64,000 nt of DNA from Pelagomonas calceolata. Its lineage: Eukaryota > Sar > Pelagophyceae > Pelagomonadales > Pelagomonadaceae. Of this stretch, positions 1,641-62,734 are shown piece after piece. A program made the position numbers and the translations under genes. The stretch covers positions 2,294,001 to 2,358,000 of the forward strand of contig CAKKNE010000004.1 of assembly GCA_918797485.1 (NCBI GenBank), in the 5' to 3' direction. Position 1 is the stretch's first letter. Every line of letters starts with the position of its first letter. The notes under the pieces are model-generated. The model did not search any database and was not told the origin of the DNA. It was given only the letters and a program-made list of their open reading frames with translations.

Positions 1641-1662
1641 CTAGTGTCTTACAGGCCGCTAG
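1641..1662 (-). promoter_or_regulatory. CTAG-armed upstream element, copy 1
   Basis: Imperfect palindrome: CTAG arms around a TGTCTTACA core. Strand is given so that '+' reads CTAGCGG - TGTAAGA - CACTAG. It lies in the divergent intergenic region between the coiled-coil gene (182 bp to its ATG at 1458) and the SNARE gene (208 bp to 1871). Confidence 0.75.
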
Positions 1663-1870
1663 ATAGCTCCAAATAATGCTCAGTCCGCGCGGGCCAAACA
1701 CTAGGCGCATTCATTCGGACAGGAGACGCATTCACCCGAGGAGGACGCGCTTTGACGAGTTCCTCCCCGGCCGGCCTCACGCGGACTCAGCCGGACCGGA
1801 GGCGCGCCACACAAGTGCGCAGCTCAGCAGCACTCTTCCGGCGCCCGCACCAGCGGCCGACGCGACAGCC

Positions 1871-2158
1871 ATGTCGGCCCGCGAGCGCCTCGCGGCCCAG
1901 GACGCGCAGCTCGAGCGCCTCGGCGCCGGCGTCGACCGCATCCGGAACCTCGGCGAGACGATGCATGACGAGACCCGCCAACAACTGGGCTTGCTGGATC
2001 AGTTGGAGGGCGACGTCGACAAGACGACGTCCGGCATCCGCGAGGAAACGAAGCACGCGGAAGACGTCGCCGTGAGCGGCCAGACCTTCTACATGTACGT
2101 CTGCATCGCGATCCTGATCCTGGTCATGGTCCTCGAGCTCATCATCGGCCTGCAGTAG
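1871..2158 (+). CDS. Tail-anchored Q-SNARE-like protein
   Basis: A 95-residue protein from the ATG at 1871. Residues about 10-65 form a heptad-spaced SNARE-motif helix (GETMHDETRQQLGLLDQLEG and following DVDKTTSG), close in pattern to Qc or Bet1/SYP5-type SNAREs. Residues about 73-94 are a strongly hydrophobic C-terminal anchor with almost no lumenal tail. The family drives membrane fusion in the secretory or endosomal pathway as part of a four-helix bundle. I cannot fix the zero-layer residue or the subfamily by eye, so Qb versus Qc and the compartment are open. There is no N-terminal regulatory domain. The 3' end lies 35 bp from that of the opposing fragment at 2194. Confidence 0.7.
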   Translation: MSARERLAAQDAQLERLGAGVDRIRNLGETMHDETRQQLGLLDQLEGDVDKTTSGIREETKHAEDVAVSGQTFYMYVCIAILILVMVLELIIGLQ

Positions 2159-2193
2159 GTAGTAGGCCACCCCTGTTCGTTAAATCTTGATAG

Positions 2194-2532
2194 TTACGTT
2201 AGTCTTGTTCGCCAGAAGTGTTTCGAGGGGCCGTTGAAGTGCAAAAGGCACGCCGTCGAGCCGCCGGCGAGGAGCGAGTCCTCCGGGGCGTCCTTACGGC
2301 GCGCCGACGGCGTTAAGCGAAACGCGTTCGTCACAAGCTCGGCGCAGTAGTCGAGCGTGAGGCGTGACTCTCCCGCGACGCCGCGCGTGAAGTAGGTCGT
2401 GAACTTGCCTTGGTCGGTGCGGCCCGACGTTTTTTGTGAGGTCAACGCGGTCTGCGTCATGCGCAAGAGGTCCGCGACCCGGCCGCCAAAGACGCCGGTG
2501 TTCGCGTAGCGTAGGCGCGGCGGATCTGCGCA
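2194..2532 (-). pseudogene. Glycosyltransferase fragment (PLOD/procollagen-type GT domain, C-terminal part)
   Basis: An open frame of about 112 codons that follows directly on an in-frame TAA and has no ATG until 2460. It reads RLRYANTGVFGGRVADLLR, then TDQGKFTTYFTRG and LTLDYCAELVTNAFRL. This resembles the acceptor half of the glucosyltransferase domain of lysyl hydroxylases and related collagen glycosyltransferases (YxNSGxxxG, then DDQxxFTxxY, then LDxxxxIFQ), as I recall that family. The DxD-bearing N-terminal half is absent. The frame is cut off 46 bp from the CTAG-armed element at 2578, beyond which the carrier gene starts on the other strand. Most likely a decayed 3' fragment; an unrecognised upstream exon cannot be excluded. 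Confidence 0.45.
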
Positions 2533-2577
2533 TTATCCTCTAAGCCGACAGAGTTTAGTGCACTAGTGAGCCCCGAG

Positions 2578-2599
2578 CTAGCGGCATGTAAGGCACTAG
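2578..2599 (+). promoter_or_regulatory. CTAG-armed upstream element, copy 2
   Basis: CTAGCGG left arm, ATGTAAGG core, CACTAG right arm followed by CAAGC. It lies 135 bp upstream of the mitochondrial carrier ATG at 2735. Confidence 0.75.
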
Positions 2600-2734
2600 C
2601 AAGCTTCCTCCTTTGAATGGCAAGTCCTGCCCAAACGCTGCGCACGGCCTGCGATACGTTTCGGTCCGATCTCTATTCTTCTCCACTCGGCGACTCCACC
2701 TCTTTGGTTGCAACCGGTGCAGCAGTGCGGCAGC

Positions 2735-3574
2735 ATGGACTCCTTGCTAAGTGGCAGCCTAGCCGGCATCGTCGCGGACGTCGCCACGCACCCGCTCGGC
2801 ACGGTGAAGACAAGGCTCCAGGTGCAGGGCGCCTCGGCATCATCGCTCACGCGCTACGGCGGCGTCGCGCAGGGCCTGACGCGAATCTTAACAAAAGAAG
2901 GCGTCGGCGCGCTCTACAAGGGCGTCGGCGTCGTCGTGGCGACCGCGGCACCAGCCCAGGGCCTGTTCTTCCTGGGGAACGACACGGCGCGCGAGGCGCT
3001 GCGGCCGCACCTGCCCGCGGCGGCCGCCAGTTTCGCGGCTGGCTGCGTCGCGCAGCTCTGCGGGTCCTTGTGCTGGGTGCCGATGGATACGGTGAAGGAA
3101 CGGCTGCAAGTAGAAGGGCAGCTCAAGCGCGGGTCCAAGGCCGAGCTCGGCGGCTCCTGGAACGCGGTCCGAACGATCCTGCGGCGGGAAGGGTTGCGGG
3201 GATTCTACCCGGCGTATTGGGTCCACCAGGCGACCTGGGCCCCGTTTAACGGCCTGTTCTTCGCCATCTACGAGGCATGCAAGGACGCCGGTGTCCACGG
3301 CCTGGGCAGCGGCGTGGTCGCTGGCGTTGCGGCGGGCTTTTTAACAAACCCGATGGACCTGGTGAAGACGCGGCTGCAGGTGGCCCGAACCGACCCCAGT
3401 ACGTTTGCCTACGCCGGCGCGTTCGACTGCGTGGGGCAGATCCTGCGCCGGGAAGGGCCCCGCGCGTTCCTCGACGGGGCGATCGCGCGCTGCGCGACCG
3501 TCGCCCCCAGATTGACGATCTGCGTCCTCGTGAAGGACGCGATCGCGCCGGGCGTCAAGGAGGTGCTCGGCTAG
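2735..3574 (+). CDS. Mitochondrial carrier family (SLC25) protein
   Basis: 279 residues with the threefold carrier layout: three repeats of about 90 residues, each with a Px(D/E)xx(K/R) signature at the end of an odd-numbered helix. These are PLGTVKTRLQ (residues about 25), PMDTVKERLQ (about 120) and PMDLVKTRLQ (about 210). The first repeat has Gly where the acidic residue is usual. Matching GVGALYKG and GLRGFYPAYW matrix-helix segments follow repeats 1 and 2. The family exchanges metabolites across the inner mitochondrial membrane; the substrate cannot be named from sequence alone. The start is the first ATG; a 9-codon upstream extension begins only with TTG. No intron. Confidence 0.9.
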   Translation: MDSLLSGSLAGIVADVATHPLGTVKTRLQVQGASASSLTRYGGVAQGLTRILTKEGVGALYKGVGVVVATAAPAQGLFFLGNDTAREALRPHLPAAAASFAAGCVAQLCGSLCWVPMDTVKERLQVEGQLKRGSKAELGGSWNAVRTILRREGLRGFYPAYWVHQATWAPFNGLFFAIYEACKDAGVHGLGSGVVAGVAAGFLTNPMDLVKTRLQVARTDPSTFAYAGAFDCVGQILRREGPRAFLDGAIARCATVAPRLTICVLVKDAIAPGVKEVLG

Positions 3575-3641
3575 TTTTGTTGTTTATAAGTATATACACG
3601 TGTACTTGGGGCGGGGGGGTCGCGATCGCGCGCGGGGCCTA

Positions 3642-4022
3642 CTACTTCGGGATCGAGCGCGTCGGGATGTAGTAGAACCACAAGTACGCAATGACCGCCG
3701 GGTAGACCACGAAGAAGATGCCGAGGCGCAGCGCGACGAGGCAGTTGCACGGCTCGGGCGTCGGCTTCGTCTCGGGCGTGACCGGCTCCGGCGCCTTCGA
3801 GAAGTAGCCCGTCAGGCGCTTGAAGGGGCTCGCCCCCGTCGCTTCCTTGCCGCAGGAGCCGGGCACGCGCCCGAAGGGGCTCGCCTCCGTCGCGTCCGTG
3901 GCGGACGGCGTGGGCGTGGCGCTCAGGCCGCCCTCCTCGATGCGGCGCGCTATTTCATCCTTTTTTATCGTGAGATATCTAGCCCTGGGTTTTCCAATGT
4001 CGGCGGTCGGAGGCGTTTCTTA
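3642..4022 (-). CDS. Small C-tail membrane protein, 5' end unresolved
   Basis: The frame is open from a TAA upstream at 4023-4025 down to the stop at 3642, about 126 codons, without any usable ATG, so a short 5' exon is probably missing. A GTAAG donor-like site at 4022 and an AG near 3980 are visible. The protein reads DEIARRIEEGG, then a Ser/Thr/Pro/Gly linker with two ASPF(G/K)R copies, then CNCLVALRLGIFFVVYPAVI, a single membrane segment, with a short polar tail. I do not recognise the family. The opposite strand is noncoding and the gene is convergent with the carrier, 67 bp away. Confidence 0.4.
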
Positions 4023-4109
4023 CGGCTTCAGAGAAGTATTATCCCAGGCAGACGGGCGCTTTGAGATGCGGACAGACGCAAGCTCGCGCCGCGGGCGTGG
4101 TTTCTACGA

Positions 4110-4160
4110 GGTACGGTATGGTGGTACCGTAGGTACCTTATATGGTATACCTGGTATACC
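4110..4160. repeat. GGTAC/GGTATAC palindromic cluster
   Basis: Repeated GGTACC and GGTATACC half-palindromes (for example GGTACGGTATGG, GGTACCGTAGGTACC, GGTATACCTGGTATACC) that can fold into a hairpin. It sits between the small membrane gene and the 3' end of the channel gene. Function unknown. Confidence 0.4.
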
Positions 4161-4267
4161 TTGCCATTATTATTGGCATTACCGCAGTAACCTCGCCGGG
4201 ATAAACTAGATTATCACTCTGGTCGGCACGCGGCAGACACGGTACTAGCGAATAAAACTTACAAAAA

Positions 4268-6277
4268 TTAAGACGTCTCCACCGCCTGCCCCCGTCGCTT
4301 CCGCGCCAGCAGCATGCGGAACTTCGGTCTAATGACTTTCGCCGCGACCTGCCTTACCAATAGATCGTAGGACCGCTTCGCCGCCGCGGTCGCCGCCGTC
4401 CGGAATATAGCATACTCCTCCACAATATGCAGGAGGTCCGCGAGGGGCACGAAGTAGACCTGGGAGTGGCTCTTCGCGCTGCACCCGTAGAGCCACACCT
4501 TGGCCGACGTATGGAGGCAGCAGTCGTCTCCAATCGCGTCGTTGTTCCCGCAGAACACTAATAACTTCGGCCAGGGCGTCGCGCGCTGGAAGGTGAACAA
4601 CCGACCGTCCGCCACCACCCGCAGCCCGTCCGCGGGCGCGCCTTGATCAAAAACGTGGTCGCCGGGGCCGTGGAGCTCATCCCTCATACAGCGCGCCACC
4701 GCTAACAAGGCCATGGTCTTCTTGGCCGGGGCGAACGTACGACATCTCCCCAAAACCTGGACGCGCGCCGCCGCCTCGACGTGCGTCCTCAAGCGCGGCG
4801 GTAGCTTCGCCAACAACCCCGTGTACTTGGCCGTCAGTAATCGATTATGCATGAAGATTAAATGAGCTCGTGCCTTCGTTCGAGCCTCCTGGGGCACGGC
4901 GTGGCGCTCCAAGTACCTATCAAGCACCTTGAGCTGGGCCTTCTTGTCGGGGTCGTCAGAACTGATCTCTTCCATGACGGCCTTGACCTGGCCGATGATG
5001 ATCGCGATAAAAGCAATGGCCACGATCTTCACCCCAATCAGAAAGACGGACTGCAGGAGGTTCGGCCTCGCGGTTGGATGGAACAAAAACGCCGAGGCTC
5101 GCTCCAGCACGGCCCAGTGCAGCGCGAACAGGATCTGCCGCCCGACGGACGCGTCCTTGAGCGCTTCGGGCGGGGCGAAGCGCCGGTGCATCGCGACACT
5201 ACCACCCCAGTCGTTCTCCGTCCTACTGGCGACGCCCCAGAATGCGCACCCAATGAAGTGCATGGCAAGAAAATAAATAAAAACAATAGAAAGCATCTTC
5301 GAGGTCCCAGGGGTCAACCACCCTAAGTCAATCGTCTCGTCGACGACGTCCCTGACCCTTAACATCTTGAGCATGCGGAACACTTTACAAATCTTCAGCA
5401 TCTGGATGAACTTGCAGATCTTCGCAATGCATAGTTGGTCGTCCCCAAACAATACAGACAAAGTATCCAAAGGTATCGAGGCAATAAAGTCGACCCAGAA
5501 CCACCCTCTCAGGTAGTTCAGCGCGATCAGCCTCAAGTCCATGACTACTTCTGCTCCTCTTCTATATCCAGTCACAAAGCCCAGTCCCAAGTCCACCACA
5601 AAGCATAATTCTACAACGACGTTGATCGACTTGAGTGATCCAGGAACCTTCCTGTTGGAGTAAAAAGCCATCTCGATCGGAGCGACGACCATGGTGTAGC
5701 AAACCAGCAAAAAAATAATCGTCGTCCAGGCCGCGTGCTCCTTCGATTGCGGATCAAACACCCATTCGCTCGAGGTGTTGTACTCCTCCTGCTTGGCCGT
5801 CATTTCCAGGATCGCTTGGCTCGCGTTCTCGCCGTGCATGATCGACGTCGGTTGCACTTTGACTCTTCGACGTTTCTTCTTTTTGCAGCACCAGCTTTCG
5901 AAGTCGTGGCGGTGTCTATCCAACGTTTTTAGTGCCGAGTGCACGGCGGGGCTTCTACCCTCTTCATGAGCGTCTGCCACGAGCCGTAATTTGGACTGGA
6001 AGTTCAGAGACCGCGAGAGGTGCCGGTGCGACTTATTGGCCGACGCCTGCTGCTGCCAAGACGCCATGCGCTCGCGTCGCGTCTGTGGCGTCGGCGGTTC
6101 ACTCATTGTTGTCTGTGGCGTGGCCGGGACGTCCGAGCCCTGCGTTTTCCGCTTCGCTTCATTTAACCGCTGCCGCTGCGCGGGCGTCAGGCTGCCACAG
6201 CTTTCCAAAGCTCGCACGGAGGCGGCGAAGCTCGCGGCGGCCGCCTCGACCAAGGCTAGCGACGCGTCGACGTCCAT
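4268..6277 (-). CDS. CNG/EAG-like cation channel subunit with altered pore
   Basis: 669 residues. The basic N-terminal region (to about 160) is followed by six hydrophobic segments: S1 near 183-205 (TTIIFLLVCYTMVVAPIEM), S2 near 215-240, S3 near 255-275, and an S4-like KICKFIQMLKICKVFRMLK near 285-310 with Lys/Arg every third or fourth residue. S5 follows near 330-350, then a pore loop and S6 near 410-430. A C-linker and a cyclic-nucleotide-binding-like beta-roll follow (about 490-610). The family conducts K+ or mixed cations at the plasma membrane. Oddly, the pore loop reads LHWAVLERASAFLFHPTARP and has no GYG, GFG or similar filter. The protein may be a non-conducting or modulatory subunit. 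ATG at 6277, no intron. Confidence 0.8.
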   Translation of the reverse strand: MDVDASLALVEAAAASFAASVRALESCGSLTPAQRQRLNEAKRKTQGSDVPATPQTTMSEPPTPQTRRERMASWQQQASANKSHRHLSRSLNFQSKLRLVADAHEEGRSPAVHSALKTLDRHRHDFESWCCKKKKRRRVKVQPTSIMHGENASQAILEMTAKQEEYNTSSEWVFDPQSKEHAAWTTIIFLLVCYTMVVAPIEMAFYSNRKVPGSLKSINVVVELCFVVDLGLGFVTGYRRGAEVVMDLRLIALNYLRGWFWVDFIASIPLDTLSVLFGDDQLCIAKICKFIQMLKICKVFRMLKMLRVRDVVDETIDLGWLTPGTSKMLSIVFIYFLAMHFIGCAFWGVASRTENDWGGSVAMHRRFAPPEALKDASVGRQILFALHWAVLERASAFLFHPTARPNLLQSVFLIGVKIVAIAFIAIIIGQVKAVMEEISSDDPDKKAQLKVLDRYLERHAVPQEARTKARAHLIFMHNRLLTAKYTGLLAKLPPRLRTHVEAAARVQVLGRCRTFAPAKKTMALLAVARCMRDELHGPGDHVFDQGAPADGLRVVADGRLFTFQRATPWPKLLVFCGNNDAIGDDCCLHTSAKVWLYGCSAKSHSQVYFVPLADLLHIVEEYAIFRTAATAAAKRSYDLLVRQVAAKVIRPKFRMLLARKRRGQAVETS

Positions 6278-6378
6278 CCTGGGCTGCCCTCCTGGCTGCC
6301 CCTAGGCTGCTGGCAACCTCTGCGCAGTGCACGCGGCGCTGACGTGCGCGTAACGCCGAGCTCGTCGAACAAAAATTG

Positions 6379-6400
6379 CTAGTATGTTACCGGCCGCTAG
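6379..6400 (-). promoter_or_regulatory. CTAG-armed upstream element, copy 3
   Basis: CTAG arms, core TATGTTACC. It lies almost exactly midway between two divergent genes: 101 bp to the channel ATG (6277) and 103 bp to the GT8-like ATG (6504). Confidence 0.7.
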
Positions 6401-6503
6401 CGTGGCGCGACGCGCAAAAAAACGCCGTGCGCGGCGCGGAAGCGCTCGAAAAATTAGCGGGGCAGCCTCCGGCTGCACCCTTCGCAGCCATGCGCCGGAA
6501 CCG

Positions 6504-7655: not shown

Positions 7656-7807
7656 TGTGTGCGGTTGTGTAGTGCGATGCGGTCAAACGCGAGCGGCCGC
7701 GGCGCGCGTAAACCTCTCGTATCCGCACGGGGGGGCGTGCTTATGGCGTTTGCGATGGCTTTGCATCGCGAAGACGACTGTAAAGAGATATCGCGCGAAT
7801 TACCTCG

Positions 7808-7829
7808 CTAGTGTCTTACCGAGCGCTAG
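7808..7829 (-). promoter_or_regulatory. CTAG-armed upstream element, copy 4
   Basis: CTAGTGTCTTAC, then CGAG, then CGCTAG. The 383 bp between the GT8-like stop and the next ATG hold nothing else that I recognise. The element lies 209 bp upstream of the ATG at 8039. Confidence 0.7.
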
Positions 7830-8038
7830 CTCGGCTGTGACTTGTGGCGGCGGGGCTTTTAGAGGCCGTGCGCTGCCCGATAACGCCAACCAGTCTTTGT
7901 GCGAAGCACTCCCCGGCTGTGAACGAGCCCTCGTCGAGCGCTGAGGCCACACCGACGGCCTAAAGGGGAAGTGCACTAGTGCATTGCAATCGTCGCCGCG
8001 CGCGCGCACGCGACCGCAGCGATAGTGAAGCCGCAGTG

Positions 8039-12189: not shown

Positions 12190-12249
12190 GAAGATACTGT
12201 ATACTACTTACTATAATAGATATGGCGCCTCGCCTCCCGATATATCTCC

Positions 12250-15273: not shown

Positions 15274-15293
15274 CTAGCGCCGTAAGACACTAG
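15274..15293 (+). promoter_or_regulatory. CTAG-armed upstream element, copy 5
   Basis: 20 bp form: CTAGCGCC, GTAAGA, CACTAG, followed by CAG. It serves a divergent pair: 183 bp to the SNF2 ATG (15090) and 280 bp to the cyclase ATG (15574). The rest of the 483-bp intergenic region shows nothing recognisable. Confidence 0.75.
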
Positions 15294-19068: not shown

Positions 19069-19076
19069 GCCCACTG

Positions 19077-23113: not shown

Positions 23114-23134
23114 CTAGCGGCCGTAACACACTAG
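23114..23134 (+). promoter_or_regulatory. CTAG-armed upstream element, copy 6
   Basis: CTAGCGG, CCGTAACA, CACTAG, followed by CAAGC. It lies in a divergent region: 188 bp to the GPN2 ATG (23323) and 274 bp to the TMEM184-like ATG (22839). Confidence 0.75.
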
Positions 23135-24378: not shown

Positions 24379-24641
24379 TAGTCTCTGTGTTTTTCTTTTT
24401 TTTAGCGGTGGCCCGCGCGTACGTCGATCGGCTGGCGGGCGTGTGCGCCGACGAGATCGCCGGCAAGCGGTTCCGGAGGGTTCGCTCGACGACGCGGCCA
24501 GAGCGGAGATTACCGGTTGAACTTCACTATTCGGGGGTCAGTCGGAGAGGTCTGTTTTCAAAAGCCATCCGCCAAGGCCTGTATACATGTATACTATATA
24601 TATTTATATATACATACATATATATATATATATACGGATTC

Positions 24642-24661
24642 CTAGTGTGTCGATACGCTAG
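24642..24661 (-). promoter_or_regulatory. CTAG-armed element, degenerate copy 7
   Basis: CTAG arms with core TGTGTCGATACG. It shares GTGTCGATACGCTAG with the copy at 26259. No gene start lies within 1.8 kb downstream, so this is the only copy without a client gene. Confidence 0.45.
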
Positions 24662-24875
24662 ATCACTAGGTCTTGCGGCTCGCCAAAATACACCAGCGAT
24701 TGACGCCGCCTTCTACCGTCCAAATGGTACATCATATCAACTCCAGCCCAGTTTTCATACACAATCGACGGAACCGGAGCCGACGGCCCGCGCTCGGAGG
24801 GCGGGAGAAGAATTCTACTAGACAACTCTCGCGTTTATGTTCGTTTCCTTCCGTTTGTTGATGGGAGAGTCCATT

Positions 24876-25380
24876 TAGGCCGGATGAACACGTACTCATC
24901 TACATTAGGGGCTCCGTTAGAGCCTCGCGATTCGTCATCTTCGCGACCACACGTTTGTACCAAAACGAGCTAGAATCCTGAATCTGCGAGTATCAGCGAC
25001 GACACCATCCAGATGGACCATAACGCCGTTGTTCTATTCACGATCGACCGACTTGCCCGTTCTCCGCGGACGACGGTGCGTACGCGGGGCACTGAATTGG
25101 CCCCAGACCGGTGAGTTGTGAAATAAATTCGCGTTTCAGGCGGTTCGGTTATGGGACGGGCCATCCTACCGGGATGAACATGTACTACATTGAATTATCT
25201 CTTCCGAAGGCTCCCGGCGGCTCGGCCACTGCGCGCCCCAAGATCTCGCTCAGATGGATTTTTTGCCTGGACCTACGACCATCAGCCCGTGTACCTTCAC
25301 CATGGACCATAACGCGATCATTTGTTTCATGATCGACGGACTTACGCGAGGTCCAGATAAAGATGTTCACGTCCCGAGCG
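24876..25380. repeat. Diverged tandem duplication, about 290-bp unit
   Basis: Matching landmarks about 290 bp apart: CCGGATGAACACGTACT near 24879 and CCGGGATGAACATGTACT near 25169; ATGGACCATAACGC near 25013 and 25302; CACGATCGACCGACTT near 25039 and CATGATCGACGGACTT near 25328. On the minus strand both copies can be read as S-I-(V/M)...ALWS(I/M), which hints at an old coding origin, now full of frame breaks. Confidence 0.55.
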
Positions 25381-26210
25381 CGGGCAGCCAAAAGTACCCT
25401 TCTTATAATGTAGATGGCATATACTTGTAATTGACTATCGGTGGGGTAGTATGGGACCCACCGAGACCGCTACGGCGACTACTGGGGGCCCTCGGGTAAT
25501 TGCGTATTTGACGGTGACGGGGTGCCATCGGGCCCAAATAATTTACTTTTTTCGGATGCAGATCGGCTCGCGGACTCTCTCTGGGATAGGTCTAGGGTCG
25601 GGTAGTCGCCTAGACCGCATGCGCCGGTTCTTGGGGCTCTCCGGAGAGCTCTGGATCCAAAACATTGGAGACTTGGGCTGGAGACAGATGTGTGGCTGAG
25701 GACCTGTACTGATATGTATCCACCGATGGAAGCGCCCGCGTACGCGGCGTAGGCGATTGCACGCGACTAACACCGACCCTAGGCGACCCCAGGGAGACCT
25801 GCTGGCCGCAAATCGACTGGATTCCATCGACGCGACGGTCATGGCGGGACCGTCAATATCGCGAATTAAAAAAATTAATTTTTTCGCCCCTCAGTAAGTG
25901 TCCCATTGACCTCTTTGGACCATGAGCGAACCGAACGATACTCATACGACTGCATGGCGCTTCGTTCGCCGAAGACAGGCCCGTGGCTCGCCGCCGCGCC
26001 GCCGCGCGACCGCGCGTTATAGGAGGGAGTGCAAGCCCCCGGAGCCCTGAGTTTTTTCAAAAACCCTTCCCGGTTTTCAAAAGCTTTTCAATAGTTTACT
26101 ATGCCAGAATAGTCAAATCTCCCTTAATCTCCGCTCTGGCCGCCGTGGGCGCGCCCGGCGTCGACAGCATCTACCGCCCCCCGCCGGCGAGCGCTCCGGG
26201 GAGAGCTCAG

Positions 26211-26255
26211 GCTCAGGCTAATTACGTCGCGGGGTCCCACGTACCCCTCCCGCTC
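26211..26255. repeat. Dispersed repeat, copy A
   Basis: About 45 bp containing GGCTAATTACGTCGCGGGGT and then ACGTACCCCTCCCGCTC. It is nearly identical to 36540-36584. Confidence 0.65.
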
Positions 26256-26258
26256 GTA

Positions 26259-26280
26259 CTAGTATGTGTCGATACGCTAG
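26259..26280 (-). promoter_or_regulatory. CTAG-armed upstream element, variant copy 8
   Basis: CTAG arms with core TATGTGTCGATACG. It lies 209 bp upstream of the primase ATG (26490), within the distance range of the canonical copies. Confidence 0.55.
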
Positions 26281-26489
26281 GTTTAACTGGGATTAGTCGA
26301 GTTTGAAAAGCGGGACCGGTTCCGCTCGCCACTCTCGCCCGCGCTCGACGCAGCGAGCCTGCATTGTATAGCTGCGCAGCGCTCCGACGCCGCGCCGCGC
26401 ATCCGCGCCGCGAAACGCGCCCTACGCCCCGCATTCACAACTGTGCCGCGCTCAGCCCACAGACGCCGCAGCAGCGCGCAAAACCGAAA

Positions 26490-28938: not shown

Positions 28939-28959
28939 CTAGCGGCCGTAAGACACTAG
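28939..28959 (+). promoter_or_regulatory. CTAG-armed upstream element, copy 9
   Basis: CTAGCGG, CCGTAAGA, CACTAG, followed by CAAGC. It lies 195 bp upstream of the methyltransferase ATG (29155), in a 352-bp gap that holds nothing else recognisable. Confidence 0.8.
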
Positions 28960-33098: not shown

Positions 33099-33313
33099 TT
33101 TATGCTTGTTTGTTGTCGACCGCTGCGTTGCACGGCGTGCAGCGTGCGTGCAGCCCCTGCAGCCTGCAGTGCTCTCTGGGTGACTGGCAATAATTGCCGT
33201 TTGCTCTGCCAGTGCCAGCAGCGGCTTTGCTACTATCAATGCGTATTTCTACGGTACGAGCGGTGCAAATAGTGCGAGTTATCAGAGCCTCGTCGCCTGC
33301 TAGCTCAGGATGC

Positions 33314-33334
33314 CTAGTGTCTTACAGCCGCTAG
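33314..33334 (-). promoter_or_regulatory. CTAG-armed upstream element, copy 10 (with extra CTAG)
   Basis: CTAGTGTCTTACAGCCGCTAG, preceded by a further CTAG at 33300-33303 and the linker CTCAGGATGC. It is shared by TruD (215 bp to 33098) and the P2 gene (459 bp to 33794). Confidence 0.75.
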
Positions 33335-36039: not shown

Positions 36040-36060
36040 CTAGCGGCTGTAAGACACTAG
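36040..36060 (+). promoter_or_regulatory. CTAG-armed upstream element, copy 11
   Basis: CTAGCGG, CTGTAAGA, CACTAG, followed by CAAG. It lies 187 bp upstream of the ATG at 36248. Confidence 0.75.
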
Positions 36061-36779: not shown

Positions 36780-36800
36780 CTAGTGTCTTACTCACGCTAG
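36780..36800 (-). promoter_or_regulatory. CTAG-armed upstream element, copy 12
   Basis: CTAGTGTCTTACTCACGCTAG. It lies 94 bp upstream of the ATG at 36895, the shortest single-gene distance. Confidence 0.7.
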
Positions 36801-39852: not shown

Positions 39853-39874
39853 CTAGTGTCTTACGGCGCGCTAG
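39853..39874 (-). promoter_or_regulatory. CTAG-armed upstream element, copy 13
   Basis: CTAGTGTCTTACGGCG, then CGCTAG. It lies 182 bp upstream of the SAM50 ATG (40057). Confidence 0.75.
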
Positions 39875-42679: not shown

Positions 42680-42700
42680 CTAGCGGCATGTAGACACTAG
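42680..42700 (+). promoter_or_regulatory. CTAG-armed upstream element, copy 14 (with extra CTAG)
   Basis: CTAGCGG, CATGTAGA, CACTAG, followed by GGATGCCTAG (42701-42710) and CAAGC. 190 bp to the OLA1 ATG (42891) and 219 bp to the divergent ATG (42460). Confidence 0.75.
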
Positions 42701-47523: not shown

Positions 47524-47546
47524 CTAGTATCTTTACAGGCCGCTAG
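47524..47546 (-). promoter_or_regulatory. CTAG-armed upstream element, copy 15
   Basis: 23-bp form CTAGTATCTTTACAGG, then CCGCTAG. It serves a divergent pair: 167 bp to the NOL8-like ATG (47714), 364 bp to 47159. Nothing else recognised in 47160-47713. Confidence 0.75.
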
Positions 47547-52067: not shown

Positions 52068-52089
52068 CTAGCGGCCTGTAAGACACTAG
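52068..52089 (+). promoter_or_regulatory. CTAG-armed upstream element, copy 16
   Basis: CTAGCGG, CCTGTAAGA, CACTAG, followed by CAAAAGC. The only adjacent start is the lipase ATG at 51882 (185 bp) on the minus strand, so here the element points away from its gene. The flanking 301-bp gap has nothing else. Confidence 0.75.
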
Positions 52090-55933: not shown

Positions 55934-55949
55934 CGGTGAGTAAGGACTA

Positions 55950-56080: not shown

Positions 56081-56098
56081 GTCGGTTTTGCCCCCTAG

Positions 56099-56120
56099 CT
56101 AGCGGCCTGCAAGACACTAG
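56099..56120 (+). promoter_or_regulatory. CTAG-armed upstream element, copy 17 (with extra CTAG)
   Basis: CTAGCGG, CCTGCAAGA, CACTAG, followed by GGATGCCTAG (56121-56130) and CAAC. 249 bp upstream of the ATG at 56370. Confidence 0.75.
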
Positions 56121-56369: not shown

Positions 56370-57989
56370 ATGCCGCACCCGTACGCCATCGTAGCGCTAC
56401 TATCTACAGCCTCGGCGCTGCTGCCGCGCCTCGCGCCGCGACAGCAACGACGGGCACCCGTCCGCTTGGTTCTTGCAGGCCGGCAGCGCTGGAGCGACCG
56501 CCGGACGAACCAAGCGATCGTCAGCAAGTGGCGCCGATCGCCGGAGCCCGAGATTGTGTATGAGGTCGACCGCAAGTGCGTCGCGAAGCATTTACCGCGC
56601 GGCGCCGACGCGGCGTACCTCCGCGACGTGCTCAGCGACGCGTTCGGGCCCCTGGCGTCGGTCGAGGTCGCGCCCGGCGACGTCGCCTACGTCGTCTTCG
56701 AGCGCAGCGAGGACGCCGCCGCGGCCACAAAAACAAGCGTGCGCGTGCGGAGCGGCGCCGGCGAGCGGACGCTCGACTGCGAGCCCTACGTCCAGAGGCG
56801 CGACGCGCCGCGGGGCGCGTCGACGCACCTGGTCGTGGGCAACGTGCCCTACGCCTGCGGCGACGATTTATTAAGGCGCGTCTTCGCCGACGCGGGCTGT
56901 CCCCCGCTGCAGCTGCGGCGGCCGAAGGACGGCGTCGCGTTTTTGGACTTCAAGGACCGCGCGACGGCGGCGCGCGCCGCGCGGCTCCACGGCACGCGCG
57001 TGCTGGGGCGGGCGCTCCGCGTCGACTGGGACGTCGTCCCGGAGGCGCCGCGGCCGCGGGACCGCCCCCCGAAGAACGCGACGTCGCTCGCGTCGCACCG
57101 GCGGCCCCGGGCGCCGAAGCGCGCGGCGCCGAAGGCGGCCGACCCGCCTTCGGTGAAGAAGCGCCCCGCCGCGACGCGCCGCGCCGCGTCGGCCGAGGCG
57201 CGCGTCGGCGCCGCGCTGGCGCACGCCGAGACCGCCCGGGACCTCGCCGAGACGTCCGGGGAGACGGCGGCGCGCGCCGCGGCGGCGGCGGCCGCCGCAG
57301 CCTGGCAGGAGGCCGACGCGCTGCGCACCGAGAACCGGCGGCTGCGGAGCCGGCTGCCGCGGCGGGCCACGTGGCAGCCGGCGCCCTTCGAGGTCGTGCT
57401 CGGGCCGGGCGCGCGGCCGCGCGACGTCGTGCGCGCGCGCGTCGACAACGAGCGCGACGTCGAGATCGTCGTGCCCGACGGCGCCGGCGCGGGCTGCGTC
57501 CTGCGCGTGCGCGGCGCGCTGCGGTGCGAGGTGCCGCGCGGGTCCTACGTCGGCGCGCCCGTCGCCGTGCCGCTGCCGGAGGCGGACTCGCAGCTGCGGG
57601 TCGTCGTGGCCGTGCCGCCGGGCCGCGGCCCCGGCGACGCGCTCTACGTCGCCTGGCCGGTCGACGTCGTGAGCGTGCCCGGGGACCGGTCGCTCCTGCC
57701 GCCGCCGGCCGTGGCGCTGCCGCCGCCCCTCTCGGACGACCCGCCGCGCCTCGCGCCGCCGGCGGCGCACCAGGCGCTCGTGGCCGCGACGCCGGACCCG
57801 CTGTTGGACGAGGCGGCCGCGCTCCGCGACGAGAACGCGGACCTGAGGAGACAGCTCCTCGCGATGCGCCGCTTGCTGCGGACGACGTCGGAGCTGTTCT
57901 TGGCGTCGCAGGCGTCTGGAACGGACATGCCGCTGGCGCTCGGGGAGGGGGACGAGACGTGGGACGAGCCGGAGGAGGACTCGGCCTAA
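56370..57989 (+). CDS. Two-RRM RNA-binding protein, probably plastid-targeted
   Basis: 539 residues. MPHPYAIVALLSTASALLPR has a signal-peptide core ending ASA, then a basic stretch (RLAPRQQRRAPVRLVLAGRQ). This is the bipartite plastid presequence pattern of heterokont algae, although Leu replaces the usual Phe after ASA. RRM-like domains lie at about 65-140 (VAKHLPRGADAAYLRDVLSD) and 150-225 (THLVVGNVPYACGDDLLRRV, DGVAFLDFKDRATAARAARL). Ala-rich coils, a beta-rich region with two similar segments (VVLGPGARPRDVVRARV, VVVAVPPGRGPGDALYVAWP) and a final acidic tail follow. Single exon of very high GC; other long frames here are shadows. Confidence 0.7.
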   Translation: MPHPYAIVALLSTASALLPRLAPRQQRRAPVRLVLAGRQRWSDRRTNQAIVSKWRRSPEPEIVYEVDRKCVAKHLPRGADAAYLRDVLSDAFGPLASVEVAPGDVAYVVFERSEDAAAATKTSVRVRSGAGERTLDCEPYVQRRDAPRGASTHLVVGNVPYACGDDLLRRVFADAGCPPLQLRRPKDGVAFLDFKDRATAARAARLHGTRVLGRALRVDWDVVPEAPRPRDRPPKNATSLASHRRPRAPKRAAPKAADPPSVKKRPAATRRAASAEARVGAALAHAETARDLAETSGETAARAAAAAAAAAWQEADALRTENRRLRSRLPRRATWQPAPFEVVLGPGARPRDVVRARVDNERDVEIVVPDGAGAGCVLRVRGALRCEVPRGSYVGAPVAVPLPEADSQLRVVVAVPPGRGPGDALYVAWPVDVVSVPGDRSLLPPPAVALPPPLSDDPPRLAPPAAHQALVAATPDPLLDEAAALRDENADLRRQLLAMRRLLRTTSELFLASQASGTDMPLALGEGDETWDEPEEDSA

Positions 57990-58100
57990 TTGATGTTTTG
58001 TTGAACTTGAAACTTGGCCCGGGGCGTGCGGTCACGCAGGGAGGCGCCGGCTCCGCAGCTAGGCTGCCTAGCTCTAAGCAAAGCAAAAACTTGACAAAAC

Positions 58101-58904
58101 TTAACACAAAAACAGCATGACTAGACGGAAGAGACCCTCCGGGAGCCCAGGTCTCGAAGGCTCGGCGCCGTCGCCCTCGAGCAGGAACGCGGCGAGCGCC
58201 AGGGTCTCCGGCTCGACGCAGAAGACGGGCCTTGCGCGATTCTGCGCCACGAGCCACCGTAGCTCGACGAACGGCAGCCGCGCCTCCCTCACGAGGACGC
58301 GAATGCCGCCTCCGGCCCGGACGCGCCTCAAGTAGGCCGCGACCGCGGCGGCATCCCTTGCTTCTGACTGCTCGGCGAGGTCCCCGGGCTTCTGGCCGTC
58401 GCGCGTGATGCGGTCGAGGTGTTCGAGATCCGCTCCCTTCCGCACAAGGTACTCCGTCACCGCGAGCCTTCCCTCCATCGCCGCGTCGTGGAGCGGCGTC
58501 CAGCCGAGCTCGTCCTCGGCGTGCAGGAATTCGGGCACGAGGCGCAGGATCGTGCGCAGCGCCTCGACGTTGCCCCGCCGCGCGGCGACGTGTGCGAGCG
58601 TTGCGCTGTGCAGCCCCGGCGCCCGCGCCAGCGCCTCGCCGCCCGCCCGGAGCATGTGCGCGCACAGCCGCTCGTGGCCGAGGTCCAGGGCCCGGTGCAG
58701 CAGCGTCGGCGTCCGGAAGTCGTCGTACGGCTGCCGGAAGTCGACGTCGCCCAGCGCTTCGATGCCTCGCACATCTCCTGCATCGATGAGGCTGCGCAGC
58801 GGGTCGGGGACGACGACATTGCTCGCATGAGTGCTTGCGGCGGTGGCGGGCTGCAATTCGTCGAGGGAGAGGGCTGGCAGCGATGTGGCAAGGTCTGGCT
58901 GCAT
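58101..58904 (-). CDS. Ankyrin-repeat protein
   Basis: 267 residues from the ATG at 58904; the frame extends upstream only from a TTG. At least four ankyrin-type repeats span about 40-180: DPLRSLIDAGDVRGIEALGD, TPTLLHRALDLGHERLCAHM, ATLAHVAARRGNVEALRTIL and GWTPLHDAAMEGRLAVTEYL with VRKGADL. The C-terminus is a helical segment ending RPGLPEGLFRLVMLFLC. Ankyrin arrays bind partner proteins, and the partner is unknown. Stop 111 bp from the convergent RRM gene. Confidence 0.85.
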   Translation of the reverse strand: MQPDLATSLPALSLDELQPATAASTHASNVVVPDPLRSLIDAGDVRGIEALGDVDFRQPYDDFRTPTLLHRALDLGHERLCAHMLRAGGEALARAPGLHSATLAHVAARRGNVEALRTILRLVPEFLHAEDELGWTPLHDAAMEGRLAVTEYLVRKGADLEHLDRITRDGQKPGDLAEQSEARDAAAVAAYLRRVRAGGGIRVLVREARLPFVELRWLVAQNRARPVFCVEPETLALAAFLLEGDGAEPSRPGLPEGLFRLVMLFLC

Positions 58905-59001
58905 TTTTACTGTAGAGAGAGGCTTGATGATGCTAATTGGACATTCCAAGACGTAAAAGTAGTCCAGTTTATAATAAAATGCATCCCTCTCTTGGCGCCG
59001 G

Positions 59002-59023
59002 CTAGTGGCCTACACGACGCTAG
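59002..59023 (-). promoter_or_regulatory. CTAG-armed upstream element, variant copy 18
   Basis: CTAGTGGCCTACACGACG, then CTAG: arms kept, core diverged. Divergent pair: 97 bp to 58904 and 264 bp to 59288. Confidence 0.5.
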
Positions 59024-59287
59024 AGTGAGAGAGCGACGGTCTTTTTTTGCATTTTATCCAGCACCAACTGACCCATTTATACGTAGTACATTCCTGAAAG
59101 GACCTAACGTAAACCGCTTCTCAGTGCCAGTCGCAAAAATCGCAGTCATTTGGTGGCCAGCTTTTTTGCCTCCAAGTGCAGACGAGAGCAAAACCAGCGC
59201 AAACGCCAAGAAGCGCTACACACGCAGCGCACGCCTGGGCTGCGCCATACCTGCATTAGCTGCGCACGCCTCATAACACGAGAAACG

Positions 59288-60121
59288 ATGGCCGCCGCCG
59301 CCCGCGCCACGCTCATCGGCCGCGACGACGCCCACTTCCGCGACCTGCTCGCGCGCCTGCCCGCGCACCTCGTCGCGCCGCCGGACCTCGACGAGGCCGC
59401 CGCCGAGAAGTTCTACAAGAACAAGGGCCAGAAGGCGCCCGAGGCCGAGCGCCGGGCCGCGTCGAAGCAGCGCCGGGCCGAGGCCAAGGCGCAGCGCGAC
59501 GCGAAGCGGCGCGGCGCGGGCGCCGCGCCGGCCGCCGACTTCGACGGACTGGGCGACGCCGAGGACGATCCGGCGCCGGCCGTCGAGCGGACGGGCGAGG
59601 CGATGGCCGACGTGCGGCAGCGGCTCCAGGCGCGGATCGCGGGCCTCAAGGGCACGCGCGGCGCGGGCGAGAAGAAGAAGAAACGCAAGGAGAAGACGAA
59701 GGCGGACGAGCGCCCTGCGAAGCACGCACGCACGGACGCGCCGGAGGATACGAAGGTTGGCGCGCTGCGCGACGCGCGGGCGGACCGGCCGACGCCCAAG
59801 ATGGTCCAGGGCGCTCCTGGGTCTAAAACCCGAAAGCTCAAGGGACTACTGAAGCAGGCCGAGCGCGACGCGGCGGAGGTCCGGCACCTGCGCGCGAGCG
59901 GCCAGGACGCGGCGGCCGACGACCGCCAGTGGGACGAGGCGCTCCGCGTCGCGTCGGGCGAGCGCGCCGCCGTCGACCCGGCGAAGGTGAAGAAGGCCCT
60001 GAAGCTGCGCGAGAAGAAGAAAAAGAAGTCGGCGAAGGAGTGGGCCGCGCGCGGGCGGGCGTCGGCGCGCGCGGTCGCGGCGAAGAAGGTACCCTCGGGG
60101 AAGAGAGTATATGACGACTAA
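59288..60121 (+). CDS. SURF6/Rrp14 family ribosome-biogenesis protein
   Basis: 277 residues, strongly basic. After an N-terminal helical part (DDAHFRDLLARLPAHLVAPP), the family core appears as DVRQRLQARIAGLKGTRGAG, then SKTRKLKGLLKQAERDAAEV, WDEALRVASGERAAVDPAKV and KKALKLREKKKKKSAKEWAA. The last blocks (LLKxAE, WxxALxxAxGxKVxDDxxxLKKxLKxKEKxKxKSxxEW) are typical of SURF6. It acts in nucleolar processing of pre-rRNA for both subunits. Single exon. Confidence 0.85.
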   Translation: MAAAARATLIGRDDAHFRDLLARLPAHLVAPPDLDEAAAEKFYKNKGQKAPEAERRAASKQRRAEAKAQRDAKRRGAGAAPAADFDGLGDAEDDPAPAVERTGEAMADVRQRLQARIAGLKGTRGAGEKKKKRKEKTKADERPAKHARTDAPEDTKVGALRDARADRPTPKMVQGAPGSKTRKLKGLLKQAERDAAEVRHLRASGQDAAADDRQWDEALRVASGERAAVDPAKVKKALKLREKKKKKSAKEWAARGRASARAVAAKKVPSGKRVYDD

Positions 60122-61099
60122 GACCTGTGGTGACTAAGAGCGTCGTCGTTTTGTGGATTTGGGGTAGTAGAAGCTTACTCGGTTTTGGGGACGCTAGCCT
60201 AGTCCCGGGGGGATGGACGCACTAGAACCAAGCCTCTAAAGGCCCGGATCCGGCGTCACGTCGTCACCGTCAGGTCTGGGAGCAGGGCCTGCCGAGCAAT
60301 GCACGAAACTTTACACGCGCGGTCCGCCGCGCGCGCTGCGGCGTCACCATCACCAGCCGTAGGAGTCCTGGTCCTCCCGCTCATCTATGGACGCCCAGCT
60401 GGGCGCAGCAGAGGCGTGTGATCTCTACAATCAACAACATCTCGAAGCACGCGTCCCGGCGGGCGGCGCGGCGGCGACGCCGGCTTAATTCGGTCGCGTA
60501 GACCTTTCTACGTGCTAGGCGAGCCCGGCGATCCGCCGTGGCGAGCGGTGAGCCGACAAAAAGGCTGTGATGTCAATATTGACCAACTCGCTACTCGTCC
60601 AGACAAGCCCCGGCGCTAACAAGGACTCCTCTCGAGGAGTAAGAAGCGTCCCTATGGGTCGCTGATAACTGCGTAAAGGAGCAGGCTCCAAAACACGGGT
60701 TTTCACCGCATTTAGAATAAGTATAAGCCAGCCTCCGTTCACCGAACTCGTCATTAATAGAAGTTGATCTCTATAAATGCGACGCCTGTGCCGCCCCATT
60801 GGCCCACGACACGCCTAAATGTGTGCAAAAATGTGACTGCAAATGCCTGTGGCATTGATGATCTTCGGACGACGACAACTAGGCGCGTCCTTTCCCCTCT
60901 TCCATATCAACACGTTCACTCCTATCCCCCTCCTTCCCTCTCGTGATAAGCACATTGTAGTATATTTCTGACTTGCGAACGGCCGTCGGACGCGAGTAAT
61001 GGCGTCTTTCTTGGGACGGCGTGTGATTAATATGAGGGCCGGGGACGGGACGGGGCTAGGCGCCTAGTAAAGAAAAGCATACAAATATTATGAGCCCGC
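60122..61099. other. Intergenic region of about 1 kb without recognised gene
   Basis: Both flanking genes end here (SURF6-like from the left, GRAM/VASt from the right). The region contains a 12-bp palindrome CTAGGCGCCTAG at 61056-61067 and a palindrome GCCCAGCTGGGC near 60393. A minus-strand frame at 60515-60799 reads protein-like in part (NGGWLILILNAVKTRVLEPA), but has no support. No CTAG-armed element, tRNA or clear repeat seen. Confidence 0.5.
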
Positions 61100-61240
61100 T
61101 CAGTGGTCCTTCCGCAGCACCTGGTTGATATCTTCCCGCAGGCCCTGGACCTCCAGCAGCAGCCGCGCGTTCGCCGACCGCTGCGCGAGGTAGAGCCAGA
61201 GGAAGCCCGCGGCGACGGCCCACGGCAGGTACGATGGGTG

Positions 61241-61276
<36 letters not shown>

Positions 61277-62518
61277 CCTTTCGGACGACGGCGCCGCGGC
61301 GAGGTGCGCCCGCGCAGCCGCCGCGTAGGCGTCGTAGTAGGCCTGCAGGTCGCTCCGCGACGAGCTCTCGATCTTCCGCTTGAAGATCGTGGACTTGCTC
61401 CACTTGACCTCGAACTCGAACGCGACGTCGACGCCGTCATCCCGCGGCGTCACGACCCACCGATCATGAATCGCGAAGCAGTCTCGGTACGGAATGTCCT
61501 CCATGGACAGCACGCCGTGCAGCACGAGGCCGTGGCGGCCGAAGGCCCGGCACCGTTGGATTTTGGTGGTGCGCGCGCTCTTCGGGCCCATCGGGTTGTT
61601 CAGGAGCCGCCGGAATCTCAACTCGCGGTCGTGTTCCCCGTCGGACGACGCCCACGGCGTGCACGCGACCTCCAAATCACCTTGGTCGACATGAAATTTT
61701 GTGAGCGGAAACCCACACCCATCGGCCAAAAAATGCGCGAAGAATTCGTCGACACTCACTGGCAGTTGACACGTATGCAACGTCTCCGCGAGCTTCGTGG
61801 CGTGCACTTCCGCACCAAACGCCTTGGCCGTGCTCCGCGCGTGCTCGGGCGTGTCCGCGACGTCCGGCGTTGACGGCCGCTCCTGGACGTCGGGCCCGGC
61901 GATGCCCTCGATGCGCTTCAGGAGGTCCTGCTGGGGGAGGGACTCCTGCCGGGCGACGGGCGTCTCGACGTGCGTCTCGAACTTCTCCGCCTCCTCCTTG
62001 GACTCCTGTTGCTGGGTCTCCTCCTCTTCCACGTGGCTCGACGCCGGTTCCAATACCGTTCTATACATCTCGTGGTAGGCCCTCAATAAGTTAAAGCAGT
62101 CGTCCCGGTCCCAGAAGCTCCGGAACACGTACTCTTTTCTTGCGGTAATTACTGCAATGGCATTCGGGATGAACACCGCCGTGTTCTCCTTCGTAACACA
62201 GGTCACGTGCGAATAGGGGATCTTGATCTTCTTCTCGAAGCCGAATAAGTTGGAATAGAAGCAGATGAACCGCTCCGTGACGTAGAGTCTACCGTGCAAC
62301 AGTATTTTCCTTTCGATGGCGCACGAGAAGTCCCTCCGAATGGCCCCGACGTCCCCAAATATGGTCCTGACGATCTCGTCGCGCCACGCCGCCGGGTCCT
62401 GCTTGTCCTCCTCGGTGTCTATCTCTATTTCTTTCGAGCTCGCGCGGCACGCGGGCGTCTTTATTGACGCGCTGTTCTTCCGCCCGAAGCGGTCGCTCGC
62501 GCTGGGGATCTGGCTCAT
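61100..62518 (-). CDS. GRAM/VASt-domain sterol-transfer-like protein (Lam/Aster type)
   Basis: 472 residues. The GRAM domain at about 50-130 reads DFSCAIERKILLHGRLYVTE, RFICFYSNLFGFEKKIKIPY and SHVTCVTKENTAVFIPNAIA. A disordered acidic linker leads to the VASt domain at about 235-400 (LPVSVDEFFAHFLADGCGFP, TTKIQRCRAFGRHGLVLHGV, SMEDIPYRDCFAIHDRWVVT). A ten-proline run precedes one membrane helix (YLPWAVAAGFLWLYLA) and a short coil. Lam/Ltc and Aster proteins sit in the ER at membrane contact sites and carry sterols; this one has the same order. ATG at 62518; element 195 bp upstream at 62714. Confidence 0.9.
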
Positions 62519-62713
62519 GGCTGTTATGCAGCGGCGCGCGTCGGCGGAGTAGCGCGCTCTGGCACACTCTTTTTGGGTCAGGCTTTTCAGTTCTCTCCTT
62601 GCGCGGCACGACGCGCGGCGGCTGGGTGGCGCGCTGGGAGAGGACTGTGGCAGTGGTTCTTACGCACGTCGCTAGAGGAGAAAAGCCAGCGCGCACTTTT
62701 CACTCGTGCCAGG

Positions 62714-62734
62714 CTAGTGCATTAATGCCGCTAG
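62714..62734 (-). promoter_or_regulatory. CTAG-armed upstream element, variant copy 19
   Basis: CTAGTGCATTAATGCCGCTAG: arms kept, core TGCATTAATGC, itself palindromic. Divergent pair: 195 bp to 62518 and 314 bp to 63049. Confidence 0.55.

What the first reader, a model, noticed from the sequence alone, without database searches (positions are those of the whole stretch)
1641..62734. A 20-23 bp CTAG-armed palindrome recurs in 19 intergenic regions
Copies at 1641, 2578, 6379, 7808, 15274, 23114, 24642, 26259, 28939, 33314, 36040, 36780, 39853, 42680, 47524, 52068, 56099, 59002 and 62714. The form is CTAGCGG, a TGTAAGA core, and CACTAG, usually followed by CAAG, in either orientation. None lies inside a coding region. 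Eighteen lie upstream of at least one start codon, and about half sit between divergent genes. Fifteen keep the core and four are degenerate. No transposon-like body or target duplication accompanies it. This looks like the binding site of an abundant sequence-specific promoter factor. I know of no described counterpart.
Basis: seen in the sequence. Interest (0 to 1): 0.88.

Follow-up and report, generated by a model that had tools for sequence, protein, structure and literature searches.

The report
Promoter dyad motif in Pelagomonas alga
A tiny ocean alga carries thousands of copies of one short, lopsided mirror-image DNA signal in the gaps where genes start, usually one per gap, which looks like the landing site of an unknown protein that marks its promoters.

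Summary
All 19 copies are at the stated coordinates and one more lies at 62820; 0.07-0.08 are expected by chance in the window. The genome matches Pelagomonas calceolata RCC100. Genome-wide, CTAGCG-N4..14-CACTAG occurs 4,116 times against 43 for the reversed control, equally on both strands.

In 184 kb around the window, 44 of 48 matrix hits lie in intergenic gaps containing a start codon, none in 37 convergent gaps, and 2 low-scoring ones in 144 kb of coding sequence. Tandem-gap hits show no strand bias (9:10); divergent-gap hits are central and almost always single. The right half is rarely without the left CTAG (3 of 93). In a second Pelagomonas lineage, 6 of 7 compared gaps have a motif in both, once flipped; motif identity is 91-95% against 46-59% in flanks in three pairs measured.

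Best reading: the asymmetric dyad site of an unidentified, abundant general promoter factor. Factor and binding are inferred; no description was found in the searched papers.

The parts
1641..1662 (-). dyad copy, 22 bp, full core
2578..2599 (+). dyad copy, 22 bp, GTAAGG core variant, CAAG flank
6379..6400 (-). dyad copy, 22 bp, GTAACATACTAG variant, divergent gap
7808..7829 (-). dyad copy, 22 bp
15274..15293 (+). dyad copy, 20 bp, divergent gap
23114..23134 (+). dyad copy, 21 bp, divergent gap
24642..24661 (-). minor subtype (CTAGCGTATCGACACACTAG), in a 2.1 kb gap, 1.8 kb from the next predicted start
26259..26280 (-). minor subtype (CTAGCGTATCGACACATACTAG), 22 bp
28939..28959 (+). dyad copy, 21 bp, CAAG flank
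33314..33334 (-). dyad copy, 21 bp, with GCATCC extension on its CACTAG side (window 33308-33313)
36040..36060 (+). dyad copy, 21 bp; overlaps the end of an unsupported ORF
36780..36800 (-). dyad copy, 21 bp
39853..39874 (-). dyad copy, 22 bp
42680..42700 (+). dyad copy, 21 bp, followed by GGATGCCTAGCAAG
47524..47546 (-). dyad copy, 23 bp, divergent gap
52068..52089 (+). dyad copy, 22 bp, full core, between the 3' end of one minus-strand ORF (52184) and the start of the patatin-domain ORF (51882)
56099..56120 (+). dyad copy, 22 bp, followed by GGATGCCTAGCAA
59002..59023 (-). dyad copy, 22 bp, weaker core, divergent gap
62714..62734 (-). degenerate dyad copy, 21 bp
62820..62840 (+).

Best explanation
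The element is an orientation-independent, promoter-proximal DNA site. Its consensus is rCTAGCGg-N2..4-GTAAGACACTAGCAAG: an asymmetric inverted repeat of CTAG-headed half-sites with a flexible joint next to the left arm. The most likely mechanism is that an abundant sequence-specific protein, probably a dimer or a paired complex because both arms are nearly always present, binds the site, keeps the intergenic gap free of nucleosomes, and so licenses transcription on whichever side or sides a gene starts. This is how general regulatory factors (Reb1, Abf1, NRF1-like factors; recalled) are understood to work. One site usually serves a whole gap, including both genes of a divergent pair. Shown here: sequence, number, location, spacing rule, lack of strand bias in tandem gaps, near one-per-gap rule, conservation between lineages. 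Inferred: a protein binds it, the protein is one factor, and it opens chromatin.
For: 4,116 strict copies against 43 in the reversed control, 2,037 forward and 2,079 reverse. In 184 kb, matrix hits of score 10 or more: 48 against 2 in the reversed sequence (the matrix was built largely from copies in this same stretch). Of the 48, 25 lie in divergent gaps (24 of 36 occupied), 19 in tandem gaps (17 of 37 occupied), 0 in 37 convergent gaps, 2 in predicted introns and 2 low-scoring in 144 kb coding. One of the two 'introns' (52068) is a gap between two same-strand ORFs. Tandem orientation relative to the gene is 9 same, 10 opposite; distance to the predicted start has median 209 bp, 17 of 19 within 91-318 bp. 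In divergent gaps the site is central (KS p = 1e-5). Only 1 of 36 divergent gaps has two sites where independent promoters would give about 10 (p = 1e-4); over 65 gaps under 900 bp a length-based Poisson expects 8.5 with two or more, 1 observed. GTAAGACACTAG occurs 2,364 times (control 1), with 2,271 pattern matches having a CTAG 2-10 nt upstream; in the part of the two lists that overlaps, 90 of 93 forward copies have the partner; locally 22 of 22 AAGRCACTAG do. Orthologous copies: motif identity 0.95, 0.95, 0.91 against flank identity 0.47, 0.59, 0.46 in the three pairs measured. The genes served are mixed (SNF2, cyclic-nucleotide-type channel, PF03029 ATP-binding protein, YchF GTPase, RRM, methyltransferase, GRAM/VASt; 7 of 19 ORFs tested had no Pfam domain), as expected of a general factor.
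Against: No RNA, chromatin or binding data were available. Gene models are a home-made HMM without transcripts, whose reverse strand needed a work-around. Convergent gaps are very short (median 39 bp, 3.6 kb in all), so their emptiness is only moderately significant on its own (p = 0.0125). In tandem gaps the fractional position of the site was not distinguishable from uniform (p = 0.88, older models), so a fixed distance to the start is not shown; two tandem sites lie 1.84 kb from the next start. In divergent gaps the CAAG side points to the nearer start in 17 of 25 (p = 0.11), a hint against full orientation neutrality. About 40% of predicted genes (44 of 109) have no copy upstream. Length variation of 18-25 bp is unusual for a single rigid dimer, and the variant half ACATACTAG lacks a CTAG partner within 18 bp in 2 of 8. 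The 184 kb is about 1.5 times richer in strict copies than the genome average (36 in 184 kb, against 4,116 in 32.4 Mb), so occupancy there overstates the genome.
Confidence: 0.74

Rival explanations
1. It is a core promoter element: the place where the pre-initiation complex itself assembles (a two-way initiator), not an upstream factor site.
For: Very common; 17 of 19 tandem sites lie 91-318 bp before a predicted start codon; central in divergent gaps. The CAAG side points to the nearer start in 17 of 25 divergent-gap sites.
Against: [quoted passage not shown] Here tandem orientation is 9:10. T on the gene side falls with distance from the motif (0.21-0.22 at 0-40 bp, 0.11-0.16 beyond 160 bp), which suggests that starts lie further out.
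Confidence: 0.1
2. It is a CTAG-bounded micro-cassette that is inserted, duplicated and inverted at CTAG by a nuclease, recombinase or domesticated transposase with a 4-nt CTAG stagger, and is only secondarily used by promoters.
For: Both ends are CTAG. A 6-bp module follows the CACTAG end in either orientation (3 GGATGC and 3 GCATCC in 61 copies); in 3 of these 6 a second CTAG follows at once, in one CTTAG, in one CTAG a few bases on, in one none; CAA follows in 3. CTAG directly precedes the left arm in 2 of 61, and four of the places listed appear twice, 4 bp apart. One orthologous copy is flipped at a similar distance from the downstream gene.
Against: Copies are retained in orthologous promoters with high identity. 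They avoid coding sequence and convergent gaps. The CAA flank travels with the flipped copy, so a cut at CTAG alone does not explain it. No clean empty site was seen. Turnover of a binding site gives the same patterns.
Confidence: 0.07
3. It marks replication origins or chromatin boundaries, and its promoter location is a by-product.
For: Origins and boundaries often sit in promoter gaps (general knowledge); mostly one per gap.
Against: Thousands of copies, one strict copy per about 8 kb on average, is dense for origins; the placement in start-containing gaps favours promoters.
Confidence: 0.05
4. It is the remnant of a MITE, an introner element or another transposon.
For: High copy number, inverted-repeat ends, both orientations.
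Against: No homology beyond -2/+4 bp in 58 copies. The two introner-like introns seen in related contigs have TGTG../..CCCACACA-type ends and no CTAG in the printed stretches (L053 and L055). Only 2 of 48 hits, both low-scoring, fall in coding sequence.
Confidence: 0.02
5. It acts as RNA: a hairpin in leader or tail transcripts.
For: CTAG arms could pair.
Against: Orientation relative to tandem genes is 9:10. The arms carry a constant mismatch (CTAGCG against CACTAG), in 99 of 100 listed symmetric-pattern matches. No Rfam family reaches its gathering score in the window or the five loci tested.
Confidence: 0.01

Closest known systems
General regulatory factor sites of yeasts (Reb1, Abf1, Rap1)
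   Same: Abundant, in intergenic promoter gaps of a compact genome, one site serving divergent genes (general knowledge; PMC7618759 and PMC6602560 seen only as listing with abstract start).
   Different: Sequence unrelated as far as I recall; flexible asymmetric dyad; factor unknown.
Animal housekeeping-promoter factors (NRF1, ZNF143/THAP11, M1BP, DREF/BEAF); recalled, not searched
   Same: A long, information-rich site near broad sets of promoters.
   Different: Consensus sequences, as I recall them, differ from CTAGCG-N-GTAAGACACTAG.
Oomycete promoter elements (INR, FPR, DPEP)
   Same: Genome-wide promoter elements in stramenopiles; estimated in 7-18% of promoters each (passages of PMC3599244).
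   Different: Those are strand-biased core elements at the start site; CTAG does not occur in the main text of that paper.
Heat-shock factor gapped site TTCTAGAA in Phytophthora infestans
   Same: A stramenopile factor site with a central CTAG (passages of PMC11267843).
   Different: The TTC/GAA arms are absent; here CTAG is at the ends, not the centre.

Membership tests
General regulatory factor (GRF) type promoter site | enriched in promoter gaps, nearly absent from coding sequence | tested here: met
   184 kb: 44 of 48 in start-containing gaps, 2 of 48 in coding
General regulatory factor (GRF) type promoter site | placed in either orientation | tested here: met
   2,037/2,079 genome-wide; 9/10 relative to tandem genes; but 17 of 25 divergent-gap sites point CAAG to the nearer start (p = 0.11). 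Placement only, not activity
General regulatory factor (GRF) type promoter site | conserved as a unit against diverged flanks | tested here: met
   motif identity 0.91-0.95 against flank 0.46-0.59 in the 3 pairs measured, of 5 same-orientation pairs
General regulatory factor (GRF) type promoter site | bound by a factor that excludes nucleosomes | not testable with these tools
   no chromatin or binding data held
Core promoter element (INR/TATA/DPEP type) | strand bias towards the gene | tested here: not met
   9 same, 10 opposite in tandem gaps
Core promoter element (INR/TATA/DPEP type) | fixed distance to the transcription start | not testable with these tools
   no mapped starts; start-codon distances 91-318 bp in 17 of 19, two near 1.84 kb
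MITE / transposon copy | shared body between or beyond the inverted repeats | tested here: not met
   no information beyond -2/+4 in 58 copies
MITE / transposon copy | insertion without regard to promoters, or empty sites in relatives | tested here: inconclusive
   placement argues against; no clean empty site in 7 orthologous gaps, but gaps are highly diverged
Introner element | lies in introns, with splice sites at the element ends | tested here: not met
   introner-like ends differ; 2 of 48 in predicted introns, one of them a gap between same-strand ORFs
RNA hairpin element | arms stay complementary | tested here: not met
   listing counted: CTAGCG opposite CACTAG in 99 of 100

The most novel reading that the evidence does not exclude
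Promoter gaps of Pelagomonas are built from interchangeable DNA modules joined at CTAG. A CTAG-specific nuclease, recombinase or domesticated transposase cuts with a 4-nt stagger and can insert, duplicate or invert modules (the 14-18 bp core; the 6-bp GCATCC unit in both orientations). The same or a related protein then acts as the genome's general promoter factor.
Probability: 0.06. Interest if true: 0.9.

Novelty: new member of a known kind. Interest (0 to 1): 0.62.

Why it matters
[quoted passage not shown] A single site present at a large share of promoters would give a handle on how a compact stramenopile genome organises transcription. It would allow the factor to be caught by affinity, and promoters to be predicted and built. 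The flexible joint with nearly obligatory paired arms is an unusual design, and its flips and insertions between lineages make promoter-site turnover directly observable.

Tried and rejected
RNA families: no Rfam match at gathering score in the window or in the five loci L003, L006, L032, L053 and L055. Virus-borne motif: the strict pattern had 0 matches in viral contigs. Bacterial contigs with the motif: 4 hits in genome contigs, all labelled Spirochaeta MAGs. L029, L031 and L032 proved to match the window's genome in their main blocks at 82-94%, and L030 over about 1.6 of its 8 kb at 96 and 90%. A second dyad form, CTAGTATGT..ACTAG, is real but rare (39 copies, control 0). Gene class or codon use: no GC3 difference between genes with (57) and without (41) the motif (p = 0.50); protein length 434 against 368 aa, p = 0.11. 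The first HMM runs gave no minus-minus neighbours because reverse introns were favoured; counts use the first models and, for placement, are superseded. Rows dropped: the first gene of the 184 kb was removed before counting (overlap at the edge); overlapping and foreign loci were left out of the 58- and 61-copy sets. A plastid hit of 15.7 came from a scan in which 5,000 masked bases had been replaced by A; the strict pattern has 0 matches in that plastid stretch (10 kb, half of it masked) and 0 in the 10 kb mitochondrial stretch.
Full report
WHERE IT IS. The window is C4:2294001-2358000 of a 32,445,274-base genome in 8 contigs. Six contigs are 3.9-6.3 Mb and two are 90,574 and 39,373 bases. 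This matches the published P. calceolata RCC100 assembly: six nuclear contigs totalling 32.4 Mb, a 90 kb plastid and a 39 kb mitochondrion, 63% GC (passages of PMC9481584). The species name is my inference from that match. The paper reports 16,667 genes, 0.45 introns per gene, and a peak of introner-size introns near 210 bp. Its main text has no occurrence of palindrom-, inverted repeat, motif, promoter, transcription factor or intergenic (word counts); supplements were not open to me. A 2026 paper on strain CCMP1756 (PMC13284251) likewise has no motif, promoter, transcription factor, palindrom- or CTAG in its main text.

OBSERVATION. All 19 copies are present at the stated coordinates, plus a 20th at 62820. 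The strict form occurs 20 times in the window against 0.07-0.08 expected. Genome-wide, CTAGYGN10CRCTAG has 2,200 matches against 22 in the reversed-pattern control, and CTAGCGN{4,14}CACTAG has 2,037 + 2,079 against 17 + 26. A matrix made from the 58 local copies finds 48 sites in 184 kb at score 10 or more, against 2 in the reversed sequence; most of those copies come from the same 184 kb.

ANATOMY. The element is an asymmetric dyad. The left arm is CTAGCG, usually followed by G or T, then C. The right side is a rigid block GTAAGACACTAG, followed by CAA in 27 of 61. In the 100 forward copies listed (100 of 4,116), length is 22 in 53, 21 in 25, 20 in 13 and other lengths in 9. The gap between CTAGCG and GTAA is 4 nt in 49, 3 in 15 and 2 in 9 of the 75 with GTAA, while GTAA to CTAG is 4 nt in 70 of 75. 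So the joint is flexible mainly on one side. The right block rarely occurs alone: 2,364 GTAAGACACTAG in the genome (control 1), and 2,271 pattern matches with CTAG 2-10 nt upstream (CTAGCTAG doublets count twice, so 2,271 slightly overstates). Where the two printed lists overlap, 90 of 93 forward copies have the partner. A minor subtype with GACAYACTAG tends to a nearly perfect 20-bp palindrome (24642, 26259; also L003); its ACATACTAG half lacks a CTAG partner in 2 of 8 local cases. No information extends beyond -2 and +4.

LOCATION. I built gene models for 184 kb (C4:2234001-2418000, about 0.6% of the genome) with a self-trained HMM, taking plus-strand calls from each strand. Of 48 sites: 25 in 36 divergent gaps (24 occupied), 19 in 37 tandem gaps (17 occupied), 0 in 37 convergent gaps, 2 in predicted introns, 2 low-scoring in 144 kb of coding sequence. 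Convergent gaps are short, so their emptiness alone has p = 0.0125. Orientation relative to tandem genes is 9:10; in divergent gaps the CAAG side points to the nearer start in 17 of 25 (p = 0.11). Distances to the predicted start run from 91 to 318 bp in 17 of 19 tandem sites, with two near 1.84 kb; the fractional position in tandem gaps was not distinguishable from uniform (p = 0.88, older models). In divergent gaps the site is central (p = 1e-5). Gaps with two sites are rarer than expected: 1 of 36 divergent gaps against about 10, and 1 of 65 gaps under 900 bp against 8.5; two of 32 tandem gaps of 150 bp or more have two, both in gaps over 2 kb. 65 of 109 genes with an upstream gap have a copy there. 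This region is about 1.5 times richer than the genome average, so a genome-wide share nearer 40% of genes is my estimate, not a count.

CONSERVATION. A strict-pattern scan of bacterial genome contigs found four hits in two 'Spirochaeta' MAGs. L032, L029 and L031 match the window's genome in their main blocks at 82-94%, L030 over about 1.6 kb at 96 and 90%. They therefore come at least in part from other Pelagomonas lineages (inference). Seven orthologous gaps that have a site in at least one lineage could be read in both; gaps without a site in either were not counted, and the contigs were found by the motif, so only presence on the reference side is a fair test. Six have a site scoring 10 or more in both: L032:2199, 4291, 5353, 7634 (degenerate, 14.3); L029:7907; L031:1063. 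One (L032:462) has it only in the MAG lineage. Of the six, five share orientation and one (5353) is flipped at a similar distance from the next aligned block. In the L029 pair the site has shifted relative to the upstream aligned end. In three of the five same-orientation pairs, the ones I aligned locally, motif identity is 0.95, 0.95 and 0.91 against 0.47, 0.59 and 0.46 for the flanks. One pair differs by a 1-bp indel inside the element. For L030 a copy is listed at C1:2154908-2154929, inside the aligned block.

MECHANISM. A DNA site without strand bias in tandem gaps, mostly one per gap, central between divergent genes and conserved against a diverged background is best explained as the binding site of a general promoter factor (confidence 0.74). 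The constant asymmetry, the near-obligatory second arm and the one-sided flexibility suggest two contacts, one rigid and one adjustable. On the gene side, T falls with distance from the motif, which would fit transcription starts several tens of bp outside it; this is suggestive only. Core-element, transposon, introner and RNA readings each fail at least one test (see membership table).

AN ODD FEATURE. In 6 of 61 local copies the CACTAG end is followed by GGATGC (3) or its reverse complement GCATCC (3). In 3 of the 6 a second CTAG follows at once, in one CTTAG, in one a CTAG a few bases later, in one none; CAA comes next in 3. Two orthologous pairs (L031 and L032:2199 with the reference) share the extension. 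A 10-bp unit in two orientations with CTAG on both sides is reminiscent of insertion with duplication of CTAG. I rate the cassette reading low but it is cheap to test.

LITERATURE. No described counterpart was found in eight searches of the held open-access library. The four core strings gave 13 papers whose titles and abstract starts are unrelated; I did not open them. Pelagomonas + transcription factor binding + promoter gave 0 papers. Pelagophyte, Aureococcus and stramenopile queries showed nothing on this motif in their listings. Only passages of PMC9481584, PMC13284251, PMC11267843, PMC3599244 and PMC3597505 were read. Subscription journals, preprints and supplements were not searched.

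Noticed in passing
L029, L030 (about 2043-3615), L031, L032: Contigs filed under two Spirochaeta MAGs (MED672 and ERR599032_bin.133) are in whole or in part Pelagomonas nuclear DNA, 82-96% identical to the window's genome in their main blocks: contamination, and a source of a second lineage.
   Followed up: partly
L032:299-455 and 2050-2172; L003, L006, L034: A repeat of about 156 bp (TGTTACGGTGCTAGGACTAGTGGGCGG...) with dozens of copies in the genome, without an Rfam match in the loci tested; some copies lie in gaps next to the motif.
   Followed up: partly
L053:309-383 and L055:1424-1545: Introner-like repeats with TGTG../..CCCACACA-type inverted ends and an apparent 8-bp duplication (GTCGGCCG in L055), repeated in the genome.
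   Followed up: no
184 kb around the window, promoter gaps of the first gene models: A second enriched promoter word, GGCTGCCC/GGGCAGCC: 22 seen, 2.5 expected.
   Followed up: no
window 24379-26489: A 2.1 kb gap without a predicted gene, holding two minor-subtype copies about 1.6 kb apart; possibly a missed gene.
   Followed up: no
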